10,508 bases of DNA from Candidatus Aerophobota bacterium (GTDB taxonomy: Bacteria; Aerophobota; Aerophobia; Aerophobales; JAGGXI01): NCBI GenBank assembly GCA_021163155.1, contig JAGGXI010000117.1:1-10508 (forward strand), read 5' to 3'. This document shows positions 249-10,508 of the stretch, piece by piece. The notes under the pieces are model-generated. The model was not told where the DNA came from. It did not search any database and saw only the letters and a program-made list of their open reading frames with translations. Position numbers and translations under genes: made by a program. The number at the start of each line of letters is the position of its first letter. Position 1 is the stretch's first letter.

Positions 249-761
249 CTAATCCTCTAATCCCTTGCTTAATTCAAACTCAAATTCTTTATGGATGGTT
301 CTTATTGCTCTCTTCCCATCTTCTCTCTTTACAATACAAGAAATTCTTATCTCTGACGTATTTATCATCTTAATATTTATTTTTTCTCTACCCAGACAGG
401 CAAACATACGGCCTGCTACTCCAGGGTGGGACCGCATTCCTGCTCCTACTAAAGATACTTTAGCTACATTAGAGTCATAGTCCACATTTCCACTCTTTAA
501 TTCTTGTTTTATTTTTCCCATAATCTTTTTTGTCTCTTTTAAATCTTCTTCTCCAATAGTAAAGGAGATATCATTTTTTTTCTCTTCTGCACTACTTTGG
601 ATAATCATATCTACATTAATATTAGCTTTACCCAGAGTAGTGAAAATAAGTCCTGCTACTCCCGGCTTATCGGGAACATTTTTTATAGTTACTCTTGATT
701 GATCTTCGTCAAGAGCAGTTCCTGATAGAACAAGAGATTCCATAGGTTCCTCTTTAAGCAA
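249..761 (-). CDS. lysC: Aspartate kinase, C-terminal regulatory part (tandem ACT domains)
   Basis: This 170-residue frame is the allosteric half of aspartokinase, which binds lysine and/or threonine to control the first step of the aspartate pathway. The first ACT domain spans roughly residues 22-95, with [10 protein letters not shown] and the effector-loop region [15 protein letters not shown]. The second spans about 100-165, with [16 protein letters not shown] and [17 protein letters not shown]. The first codon used here is TTG (759-761). It overlaps the stop of the catalytic frame by 8 bp, and an AGGAGG lies 9 nt upstream, so independent coupled initiation is possible. An ATG six codons further in is an alternative. 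The catalytic part (241 aa) plus this part (170 aa) equals an ordinary full-length enzyme of about 400-410 aa, and the sequence is continuous across a +1 shift. A frameshift in a once single gene, or a base-call error, is therefore equally possible. The last four residues (GLED) are encoded by the octamer repeat. Confidence 0.88.
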
Positions 762-1479
762 TTATTGTTCCCTCCTTTTCAGTAAAACTCGAGCGAATAT
801 GCAAGGTTATCTTATACTTTTTAGCTAATTCTATTGCTCGCAGATGAATAACTTTAGCTCCTAAACTGGCTAATTCTAAAGTATCTTCATAAGAGATATG
901 TTTAAGTTTTCTTGCTTCGGGAACTATGCGAGGGTCAGCAGTATATATTCCCTCTACATCAGTATAGATTTCACATAAATCTGCTTTGAGAGCAGCAGCT
1001 AAAGCAACTGCTGTAGTATCAGAGCCACCTCTTCCTAATGTAGTGATATTATTATGAAGTGTAATCCCCTGGAAACCAGCGACTACCACAATCATCCCCC
1101 TTTTTAACTCTTTTAATATATTTTTAATCTCTATTTTCTGAATACGAGCTTTGGTATAGACTTCACTTGTAATTATTCCTCCTTGTGCTCCATTAAAGGC
1201 GATCGCCTCCTCTCCTATAGAGTGAAGAGCTATACTTAACAAAGAAGAGGAGATGGTTTCTCCACTGGATAGAAGCATGTCTCTCTCTCTTTTTGGGGGG
1301 TCGGGATTTAGTTTGAAAGCAAGTTCCAACAATTTGTCAGTAGTATCACCCATTGCAGAAACTACTATCACAAGGTCATTACCTTCATTTTTAATTTTAG
1401 ATATTCTTTTAGCTATGTGTTCAATTTTTTCAACTGAACTGACAGAGCTTCCCCCATATTTCTGAACAATTAAAGACAC
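754..1479 (-). CDS. lysC: Aspartate kinase, N-terminal catalytic part
   Basis: Aspartokinase phosphorylates L-aspartate with ATP to give 4-phospho-L-aspartate, the cytosolic entry step to lysine/diaminopimelate, threonine and methionine. This 241-residue frame holds the whole amino-acid-kinase domain: KYGGSSV (7-13), [11 protein letters not shown] (40-50), [13 protein letters not shown] (69-81), GFQGIT (135-140), [19 protein letters not shown] (146-164), [18 protein letters not shown] (170-187) and [21 protein letters not shown] (202-222). It ends at the interdomain linker ([15 protein letters not shown]), exactly where the ACT domains should begin; these follow in the +1 frame. The start is GTG, five bases after a full AGGAGGT ribosome-binding site. 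The gene lies 63 bp downstream of the nicotinate phosphoribosyltransferase gene with no clear promoter between, so co-transcription is likely. Whether the protein ends here, as a separate subunit, or continues through a sequencing error cannot be decided from the sequence. Confidence 0.93.
762..776 (-). promoter_or_regulatory. Internal Shine-Dalgarno for the ACT frame
   Basis: On the minus strand AGGAGG (771-776) is followed by nine bases and then TTG, the possible start of the ACT frame. The same bases encode Lys-Glu-Gly in the catalytic frame, so the match could be accidental. If used, it would give a coupled second subunit, similar in effect to the separate small subunit that Bacillus-type aspartokinases make from an internal in-frame start. 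Confidence 0.4.
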
Positions 1480-8922: not shown

Positions 8923-8938
8923 TTATCTCATTAGATAA
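8923..8938. promoter_or_regulatory. Short inverted repeat before the binding-protein gene
   Basis: TTATCT-CATT-AGATAA is a perfect 6-bp inverted repeat about 26-41 bp before the ATG at 8897. On the minus strand it partly overlaps TAAAAT, a possible -10 box with only a weak -35. It could be an operator or a small 5' leader hairpin. With one copy and a simple A/T-rich sequence it may also be chance. Confidence 0.35.
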
Positions 8939-8989
8939 GCTTCTCTTTCTAACAAGATTTTCTTTTTTTCTGTTTTTCACCCCCTGGTG

Positions 8990-8995
8990 TATAAT
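8990..8995 (+). promoter_or_regulatory. TATAAT -10 box near the left end of the IS110 element
   Basis: A perfect -10 hexamer lies about 155 bp upstream of the transposase ATG. The position where a -35 is expected (around 8967-8972) reads TTTCTG and is not a match. In IS110-group elements the -35 is typically provided by the right end after circularisation, so this half-promoter fits that arrangement. That reading is inference. Confidence 0.45.
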
Positions 8996-8998
8996 AGA

Positions 8999-9149
8999 TT
9001 TTGGTACCCCACTAAATCTTTATTAAACAAAGTAGGGCGGCAGACATTATACAATCTGCCTATTCACCTTTATCATTGCATAATATTTGATATTATAGAT
9101 AAAAATTATCCCTTGCCGAAAAGGCAAAATATTAACTTAGGAGTTTACG
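8999..9149 (+). ncRNA. Candidate IS110 bridge RNA (seekRNA) in the left-end leader
   Basis: The stretch between the TATAAT box and the transposase start has no coding frame of interest but several stem-loops on the plus strand. These are GGCAGA/TCTGCC (9039-9044 with 9055-9060, 10-nt loop), TAATAT/ATATTA (9081-9086 with 9090-9095, 3-nt loop) and TTGCC/GGCAA (9113-9117 with 9123-9127, loop GAAAA). IS110-group elements encode, in exactly this location, a bridge RNA of about 150-200 nt with two internal loops that specify target and donor DNA. Position, length and hairpins agree with that. The guide loops cannot be assigned without the right end and an empty site. The 3' end of the RNA may enter the transposase start region. 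Confidence 0.5.
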
Positions 9150-10508
9150 ATGAAGACAAAAAACTCTCCCACTTTAGTAATAGGCATAGATGTCCATAAG
9201 AAAAGACATTATGCCCGGGTAAAAATTTTAGGGACCCGGGAGGTCATTTCTCCTGTTTTAAAGATCTATAACTCTAAGAAGGGTTTAGACTTCCTCTTAG
9301 AAAAAGTTAAATATCTTATGAAAGAGCATGAAGCTAAAGATACTATCTTTGCCTTGGAACCTACAGGCGTTTACTGGAAGCCTTTAGGCTATGCTCTGTA
9401 TGATAAAGGTCATAATGTCCATTTAGTTAATCCGGTTCAGGTTCATTACAAAAGAAAAGAAGAGGATCCCGCTGCTAACAAGAACGATAAAATAGATCCG
9501 GGACTTATCTGTGATCTTGTTTGTGATGGTAAATCCAATCCCGCCAGGTTTATGTTGGGGATTTTCCGTGTGCTCCGAAAGACGGTTCGCAATCGAAGAG
9601 ATCTTGTCTTAGAGCTTTCCTCCAAAAAGATAAAGCTAAAAACCATCGTTTACGAGCTGTGTCCAGAATTAGTGGATGCTTTTACTGATATAACAGGTAG
9701 ACTCTCTATGGCCATCTTAAGATTTTTCCCCAGTTTAGATCTTCTTGAATCTACCTCTTTAGAGAAACTTTCCTCTGTATTTAGAATCTATGGAACTAAT
9801 AATACTAAGATCACTCCTAAGAAGTTGCTCTCTCAAATTCAACTTTCCTTAGGTATTAAGAATGATAATCAAGCTCACGTTAAGCAAATTCAAATGATCT
9901 TAGAGCAAATTGAGCTTTTAAAAAGACAGATCTCTATCTTAGAGAAGGACATTAATAATTATCTCAAAGAGCTAGGTCAGACTCTCACTACTATTAAAGG
10001 TATCGGACCTATATTAGCATCTGAGGTAATAGCTGAAGTAGGCGATGTCAATACATTTTCTAATGGACGTCAATTGGTTAAATTAGCAGGTTTGGATACA
10101 GTGGAAAATAGTTCAGGACAAACTCGCAAGAAACGCTACATCAGTAAAAAGGGTATTAGCTCTTTAAGAACAACCTCTATTTTATCTGCCTTTAGCTTGA
10201 TAAGAAGCTGCCCACCCTTTACTGATTATTTTCTTTACGAGACTAAAGTATTAGGTAAAAAACCTATGCAAGCAGTAATAGCTGTAGCGGATAAATTCCT
10301 AAGAATCTGTTTTTATATGTTAAAGAACAAAACCTCCTTTGACCCTAAAAAGGTAGGCACCGGTAATCTTAAAACCAAGGCCAAAGCCCTGAATCAGCCC
10401 CTCAAGGTATCTCTCGACTCTAAGAAGATGGTTAACTTAGATATTAATTTATTCGAGGTCTTTAGAAAAAGCCCCAAAGTGATTTTATTTGATGAAGAGG
10501 ATCCTACC
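9150..10508 (+). CDS. IS110-family transposase/recombinase, 3' end beyond the window
   Basis: This RNA-guided DNA recombinase moves the element. The N-terminal RuvC-like DEDD domain shows Asp14 (IGIDVHKKRH), Glu70 (FALEPTGVYW), and Asp113 and Asp116 (KNDKID). A central predominantly helical, coiled-coil-prone part (about 140-275, with LEQIELLKRQISILEKDINN at 251-270) leads to the C-terminal Transposase_20 domain. That domain has the helix-hairpin-helix-like TIKGIGPILASEVIAEVGD (281-299), FSNGRQLVKLAGLDTVENSSGQ (303-324) with the likely catalytic Ser322 of the Ser-Gly motif, and KRYISKKGISSLR (328-340). The ATG has TTAGGAG upstream, and an in-frame TAG four codons before it excludes an earlier start. 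The frame is open for all 453 codons to the window edge. This is longer than many family members (about 320-400 aa) because of a lysine-rich tail from about residue 395. The Ala that usually follows the last Asp is Pro here (DP instead of DA). No stop or frameshift is seen, so the protein may be active. Confidence 0.93.
   Translation, partial: MKTKNSPTLVIGIDVHKKRHYARVKILGTREVISPVLKIYNSKKGLDFLLEKVKYLMKEHEAKDTIFALEPTGVYWKPLGYALYDKGHNVHLVNPVQVHYKRKEEDPAANKNDKIDPGLICDLVCDGKSNPARFMLGIFRVLRKTVRNRRDLVLELSSKKIKLKTIVYELCPELVDAFTDITGRLSMAILRFFPSLDLLESTSLEKLSSVFRIYGTNNTKITPKKLLSQIQLSLGIKNDNQAHVKQIQMILEQIELLKRQISILEKDINNYLKELGQTLTTIKGIGPILASEVIAEVGDVNTFSNGRQLVKLAGLDTVENSSGQTRKKRYISKKGISSLRTTSILSAFSLIRSCPPFTDYFLYETKVLGKKPMQAVIAVADKFLRICFYMLKNKTSFDPKKVGTGNLKTKAKALNQPLKVSLDSKKMVNLDINLFEVFRKSPKVILFDEEDPT

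What the first reader, a model, noticed from the sequence alone, without database searches (positions are those of the whole stretch)
8985..9149. Putative bridge RNA and half-promoter in the IS110 left end
The 150-odd bases before an intact-looking DEDD/Ser transposase contain three plus-strand hairpins and a TATAAT box without a -35. In characterised IS110-group elements (IS621 type) this region encodes the bridge RNA that programs target and donor choice, and the promoter is rebuilt in the excised circle. Here the location, size and folding potential agree, so this element could be a new programmable recombinase with its own guide RNA. The hairpins and TATAAT are seen; the RNA and its role are inferred from family knowledge.
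Basis: partly seen in the sequence, partly recalled or inferred. Interest (0 to 1): 0.72.

Follow-up and report, generated by a model that had tools for sequence, protein, structure and literature searches.

The report
IS110 element with probable guide-RNA leader
This is an ordinary-sized jumping gene of the IS110 family, from a poorly known bacterial lineage, whose ends rebuild a promoter when it circularises and whose conserved leader very probably makes the family's guide RNA; it is a divergent new member of a known kind, and its guide positions could not be proven.

Summary
The finding holds in outline. The TATAAT box is real, and it is half a promoter. The right end, on an overlapping contig of the same genome, carries TTGACT; joining the ends around a CT core gives TTGACT-17 bp-TATAAT, and none of seven chromosomal left flanks supplies a -35. 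The element is 1,682 bp, with a 476-aa DEDD/Ser recombinase (IS621-like, E 2.6e-12), a 164-nt 5' non-coding region and only 85 nt at 3': the IS110-type layout. The genome holds at least seven leader copies, all flanked by CACC(T/C)C|CT, the antisense of GGAGGTG. The leader is under constraint (92% identity, gaps excluded, to a relative in another family, against 79% for the adjacent coding DNA), with two compensatory base-pair changes. It is therefore very probably the bridge RNA gene. Weak points: folding is not better than shuffled sequence, and guide complementarity is only suggestive (two matches at p about 0.06; the IS621 guide order is not recovered). A by-product: about 30%-identical relatives with 3' non-coding regions have the same end motif (AG|CTTACTATA) at the opposite end, so the recombinase gene seems flipped relative to its ends. 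New member of a known kind.

The parts
8973..8983 (+). Left half of the target site (TTTTTCACCCC here; TCACCTC consensus in the other copies)
   Evidence: Left flanks of seven copies compared
8984..8985 (+). Core dinucleotide CT, left end of the element
   Evidence: Inferred from shared left-end and right-end sequence in several copies and from the 17-bp junction promoter
8986..8997 (+). Left terminal (right donor) sequence GGTGTATAATAG; imperfect 7/8 subterminal inverted repeat TATAATAG with TATAAAAG of the right end
8990..8995 (+). -10 box TATAAT; pairs with TTGACT of the right end over a 17-bp spacer in the joined circle
8986..9149 (+). 164-nt 5' non-coding region, probable bridge RNA gene (RNA start expected near 8997-9003)
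   Evidence: Conservation above coding DNA; multicopy leader; IS110 layout
8996..9019 (+). Hairpin H1 (AGATTT/AAATCT), 5' stem-loop
9039..9060 (+). Hairpin H2 (GGCAGA/TCTGCC); C-G to T-A compensatory change in copy C84
9046..9053 (+). Candidate donor guide ATTATACA, complementary to TGTATAAT of the left end (weak)
   Evidence: p about 0.06-0.08 Watson-Crick, not significant with wobble
9063..9071 (+). Candidate left-target guide TTCACCT(TT), matches the target left half TTCACCT(CC) (weak)
   Evidence: p about 0.04-0.07 Watson-Crick
9080..9096 (+). Hairpin H3 (ATAATAT/ATATTAT); A-T to G-C compensatory change in copy C84
9113..9127 (+). Hairpin H4 (TTGCC/GGCAA); on the - strand it looks like an intrinsic terminator
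9150..10508 (+). IS110-family DEDD/Ser recombinase, cut by the contig end at 453 aa; 476 aa with contig C8
   Evidence: Pfam PF01548 and PF02371, NCBIfam NF033542, IS621 8wt6, continuation

Best explanation
The leader is the 5' non-coding region of an active or recently active IS110-group insertion sequence. SHOWN: the element's left end, a right end, a CT core consistent with both, at least seven leader copies in one genome, a recurrent target (T)CAC-C(T/C)C|CT, and a complete sigma-70-type promoter only when right and left ends are joined. INFERRED from the family: the excised circle transcribes the leader and the recombinase from that promoter; the leader RNA folds into stem-loops whose internal loops pair with the target (CACCTC|CT|TTC) and with the element's own junction (TATAGTAAG|CT|GGTGTATAAT); and the DEDD/Ser recombinase exchanges strands at CT, inserting the element at GGAGGTG-like sites upstream of genes. 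Once inserted the promoter is split and expression falls. Which loop carries which guide is unresolved; TTCACCT (9063-9069) is the best target-guide candidate and ATTATACA (9046-9053) the best donor-guide candidate.
For: Recombinase: Pfam IS110 DEDD (9.3e-21) and Transposase_20 (1.2e-20); NCBIfam 'IS110 family RNA-guided transposase' 1.4e-66; IS621 structure 8wt6 E 2.6e-12 over both domains; D14, E70, D113, D116 invariant in an alignment with relatives and an SSG where IS621 has S241-G242. Ends: junction TTGACT-17-TATAAT, p 0.02 for a 5/6 -35 at 16-18 bp by shuffling, no such -35 in seven flanks. Layout 5' NCR 164 nt, 3' NCR 85 nt. Multicopy leader with a shared target flank. Leader 92% (gaps excluded) against CDS 79% identity to G009, with a net 2-nt length change that breaks any leader reading frame. 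Two compensatory pairs. Best Watson-Crick guide matches lie on the + strand, not the - strand. Papers: NCR upstream of tnp and junction promoter in IS110 types (PMC11187229), bridge RNA in the long left end (PMC11208160).
Against: RNA folding is not better than shuffled sequence (z -0.54 and -1.6). No Rfam match at gathering threshold. Guide matches are individually p about 0.06, and the ordered four-guide test fails (p 0.92) although the same test recovers the standard order in the control element G185 (p 0.005). In G009 the proposed target guide changes to TTGACCCG and fits its single flank poorly. No expression data. Right flanks rest on one full and two sister right ends.
Confidence: 0.8

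Rival explanations
1. The leader is only the terminal DNA that the recombinase binds, plus a 5' untranslated region that regulates transposase translation; the guide RNA is elsewhere or absent.
For: Weak folding and non-significant guide matches; the first ~22 nt of the left end recur without the leader at G000:C97:1837 and nearly so at G001:C43.
Against: The whole 164 nt, not only the terminus, is conserved above coding DNA; the only other non-coding stretch is 85 nt; compensatory pairs; family precedent that the long NCR makes the guide RNA.
Confidence: 0.12
2. The guide RNA is made from the leader but on the minus strand, divergent from the recombinase, because the element's ends are mirrored relative to its nearest 3'-NCR relatives.
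For: End-motif polarity is reversed relative to G276, G359 and G102; a promoter-like site on - at 9119-9092; one 11-nt wobble match to the target on - (p 0.005 with wobble).
Against: Watson-Crick matches favour +; the rebuilt junction promoter points into +; the 11-nt match is largely U.G wobble and lies in a strong hairpin; a terminator-like site on - lies at 9129-9111.
Confidence: 0.06
3. The hairpins and TATAAT are chance features of an AT-rich leader of a dead element.
For: Folding z-scores near zero; the window contig ends inside the gene.
Against: Open 476-aa frame, near-identical copies at several sites, conserved leader, junction promoter.
Confidence: 0.02

Closest known systems
IS621 and the IS110 group (bridge RNA in the left end; PMC11208160, PMC11208158)
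   Same: DEDD/Ser recombinase, long left and short right non-coding ends, CT core, promoter rebuilt at the RE-LE junction, short subterminal inverted repeat
   Different: Recombinase 476 aa against about 326 and very divergent; target CACCTC|CT|TTC; guide order of IS621 not recovered in the leader
ISEc21 (IS110 type with upstream NCR and 74-nt seekRNA; PMC11187229)
   Same: Upstream NCR, junction promoter, linear target
   Different: Different target; the short processed RNA is not shown here
IS1111-like relatives in G359, G276, G102 (27-30% identity, multicopy in G359 and G276)
   Same: End motif CTTACTATA (CTTGCTATA in G102) next to the core and, in the CT frame, a similar C-rich left target (CCCCC|CT in G359, CCTC|CT in G276)
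   Different: The NCR of G359 and G276 is downstream of the recombinase (about 340 and 230 nt) and the shared end motif lies upstream of the gene, so the gene is in the opposite orientation relative to the ends
G185 element (28% identity, 5' NCR about 320 nt)
   Same: 5' NCR, junction promoter TTGACA-17-TATGAT, inserts at antisense Shine-Dalgarno sequence CT|CCTTT next to start codons
   Different: Its leader carries an ordered set of guide matches (p 0.005), unlike the window's

Membership tests
IS110 family | N-terminal RuvC-like DEDD domain and C-terminal Tnp (Transposase_20) domain with catalytic Ser | tested here: met
IS110 group (IS621 type) | Longer non-coding region upstream of the recombinase | tested here: met
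   164 nt upstream against 85 nt downstream
IS110 group (IS621 type) | Short or no subterminal inverted repeat | tested here: met
   Only an imperfect 7/8 repeat TATAATAG/TATAAAAG seen by eye in the end sequences
IS110 group (IS621 type) | Promoter formed across the joined ends | tested here: met
   TTGACT-17-TATAAT
IS110 group (IS621 type) | Core dinucleotide shared by donor and target, no longer target duplication | tested here: inconclusive
   CT at both ends; the exact frame rests on homology to G359 and the promoter spacing; no empty site was compared
IS110 group (IS621 type) | Leader RNA with target- and donor-binding loops complementary to both strands of target and donor | tested here: inconclusive
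IS110 group (IS621 type) | Leader is transcribed and bound by the recombinase | not testable with these tools
   No RNA or protein data available
IS1111 group | Longer NCR downstream of the recombinase and long subterminal inverted repeats (7-17 bp) | tested here: not met
   Only 85 nt downstream

The most novel reading that the evidence does not exclude
The window element and its 3'-NCR relatives share the same terminal motif and a similar C-rich (anti-Shine-Dalgarno-like) target when read in the frame where the core is CT, with the non-coding region at the same end, but the recombinase gene points the opposite way. This would mean that the IS110/IS1111 split reflects flips of the recombinase and guide-RNA transcription direction between fixed ends, rather than the guide RNA moving from one end to the other, and would also explain why the reported order of top- and bottom-strand guides is reversed between the two groups.
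Probability: 0.3. Interest if true: 0.55.

Novelty: new member of a known kind. Interest (0 to 1): 0.36.

Why it matters
Bridge-RNA recombinases are programmable DNA-rearrangement tools, and divergent members from uncultured lineages widen the set. This one is on a long branch, its closest relatives outside its phylum being about 30% identical, and it uses an SD-like target that recurs upstream of genes. If the mirrored-ends reading is right, it bears on how the two bridge-RNA groups arose.

Tried and rejected
(1) Close homologues by protein in genome contigs and viral contigs: none confirmed; with a motif-forced alignment (a conservatively altered second row used only to steer which peptides are scanned) only 22-34% relatives. 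(2) A leader DNA pattern in viral contigs: nothing. (3) Alternative core at the first CT of CACCTCCT: gives a 9-nt perfect match of TTCACCTTT to the target, but a 20-bp promoter spacer and a CC core in the window copy; rejected in favour of the second CT. (4) Ordered four-guide fit: failed for the window. (5) Minus-strand guide RNA: no Watson-Crick support. (6) Leader as a short protein (ORF 8987-9199): the net 2-nt length change in G009 breaks the frame. (7) Rfam: no match at gathering threshold; matches below it are chance-level. (8) Target-like sites genome-wide: 37 against 32 control matches at two mismatches, so no enrichment. (9) Recombinase tree: the window row is on a long branch in an unresolved comb, so no nested placement is claimed.

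Full report
What the window is. The window is the whole of contig C88 of a 1.83-Mb, 119-contig genome. Its phylum holds only 17 genomes in the collection, all of the same order. The recombinase frame starts at 9150 and runs off the contig end. Contig C8 overlaps the last 71 bases exactly and carries the frame to a stop, giving 476 aa, then 85 nt, then a right end. Joined, the element is 1,682 bp; C8 may belong to this copy or to a near-identical one.

The protein. It matches both IS110 Pfam domains, the NCBIfam 'IS110 family RNA-guided transposase' model at 1.4e-66 and the solved IS621 recombinase at 2.6e-12, with both domains aligned. D14, E70, D113 and D116 are invariant in an alignment with five relatives, and the SSG at 321-323 falls on the S241-G242 loop that is catalytic in IS621. 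In a tree of 32 relatives it stands alone on a long branch, with about 30% identity to the nearest.

Ends and target. The left end recurs in the same genome at the ends of contigs C25, C55, C56, C66 and C97 at 99% and inside C84 at 93%. Every copy reads ...TCACCTCCTGGTGTATAATAG, with CACCCCCT in the window; upstream of that the flanks differ. Three right ends, one of this element and two of a sister with the same last bases, read CACTTGACTTTTATAGTAAGCT and then diverge. CT is shared by both ends, and placing it at the second CT of CACCTCCT gives a 17-bp junction promoter; the target is then TTTTCACCTC|CT|TTC, the antisense of a strong Shine-Dalgarno-like GAAAGGAGGTGA. No empty site could be compared. 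All seven insertions lie 12-139 bp upstream of a gene that reads away from the element, most of which look like secreted solute-binding proteins; only C66 sits in a true Shine-Dalgarno position.

The half-promoter. Joining right and left ends around CT gives TTGACTTTTATAGTAAGCTGGTGTATAAT: TTGACT, 17 bp, TATAAT. Shuffling the right end gives a -35 that good, at 16-18 bp, in 2% of trials. None of the seven chromosomal flanks offers a hexamer above 4/6 at that distance. This is the arrangement described for IS110 and IS1111 circles (PMC11187229).

The leader. It is 164 nt. Comparison says more. The copy in G009, another family of the same order, keeps 92% of the leader (gaps excluded) but only 79% of the adjacent coding DNA. 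In copy C84 one pair of H2 and one of H3 change on both sides and stay paired; 24 of 500 shuffles do as well, so this is modest support. The largest difference between G000 and G009 is at TTCACC---TTT, which is also the best match to the target.

Guides. Watson-Crick runs of 7 (TTCACCT with the left target) and 8 (ATTATACA with the left end) are the best on the + strand, p about 0.06 each; the - strand has none as long. A test that asks for four guides in the IS621 order, each ending at the core, fails for the window (p 0.92) but succeeds for G185, another 5'-NCR element in a closed genome (p 0.005); G359 and G276 lie in between at 0.19 and 0.12. So the guide role is inferred from the family, not shown.

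Mirrored ends. Relatives in closed genomes gave ends by comparing four copies each. G276 and G359 have short left ends beginning AG|CTTACTATA and 3' non-coding regions of about 230 and 340 nt; G102 has AG|CTTGCTATA upstream of its gene. The window's RIGHT end is the reverse complement of that motif (TATAGTAAG|CT). In the CT frame these have donor left half ...ATAGYAAG|CT, the left target is C-rich (CACCTC, CCTC, CCCCC), and the non-coding region lies at the same end, but the recombinase gene points the other way in the window. G185, with a 5' NCR, has CATAGTTGAT|CT in the window's orientation. [quoted passage not shown] a flip of transcription direction between fixed ends would account for both. 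This rests on few elements and is offered as a lead.

Verdict. Nothing departs from the known family strongly enough to call it a new kind.

Noticed in passing
L119, L131, L134, L137 (G276) and L121, L132, L135, L138 (G185): Two IS110-family elements in closed genomes insert at Shine-Dalgarno sequences just before start codons: G276 in sense (AG|GAGG then ATG), G185 in antisense (CT|CCTTT). SD targeting may be a recurring strategy in this clade.
   Followed up: partly
G000:C84:26143-26263 and G000:C39:508-553: Leader copies without a recombinase: C84 keeps about 120 nt of the leader (93%), C39 a 46-nt decayed piece next to an IS3-like transposase gene; remnants or non-autonomous derivatives.
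   Followed up: partly
G000:C97:1837-1861 and G001:C43:819-837: Isolated ~20-nt copies of the left end (CCTGGTGTATAATAGATTT) with no leader after them, the second preceded by an extra partial copy; unexplained.
   Followed up: no
window 9129-9092, - strand: Terminator-like hairpin (9129-9111) overlapping a promoter-like TCGGCA-16-TATAAT (9119-9092) that points out of the element toward the left-flank gene.
   Followed up: no
window 8931-8972: Short repeat (CATTAGATAAGCTTCTCTTTCTAACAAG...) shared at 83-85% with contigs C65, C9 and C83, possibly a terminator or the end of another IS, directly left of the insertion.
   Followed up: no
L072 (G000:C83), - strand about 2266-2577: Decayed sister IS110 gene (MKIPTNIMAVGIDPAKQVHQ...) whose 3' end is related to that of the window's element.
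   Followed up: partly
window 249-1479, - strand: Aspartate-kinase-like protein split in two ORFs (catalytic part 754-1479, ACT part 249-761), overlapping by a few bases; either separate subunits or a frameshift. Assignment by eye, not searched.
   Followed up: no
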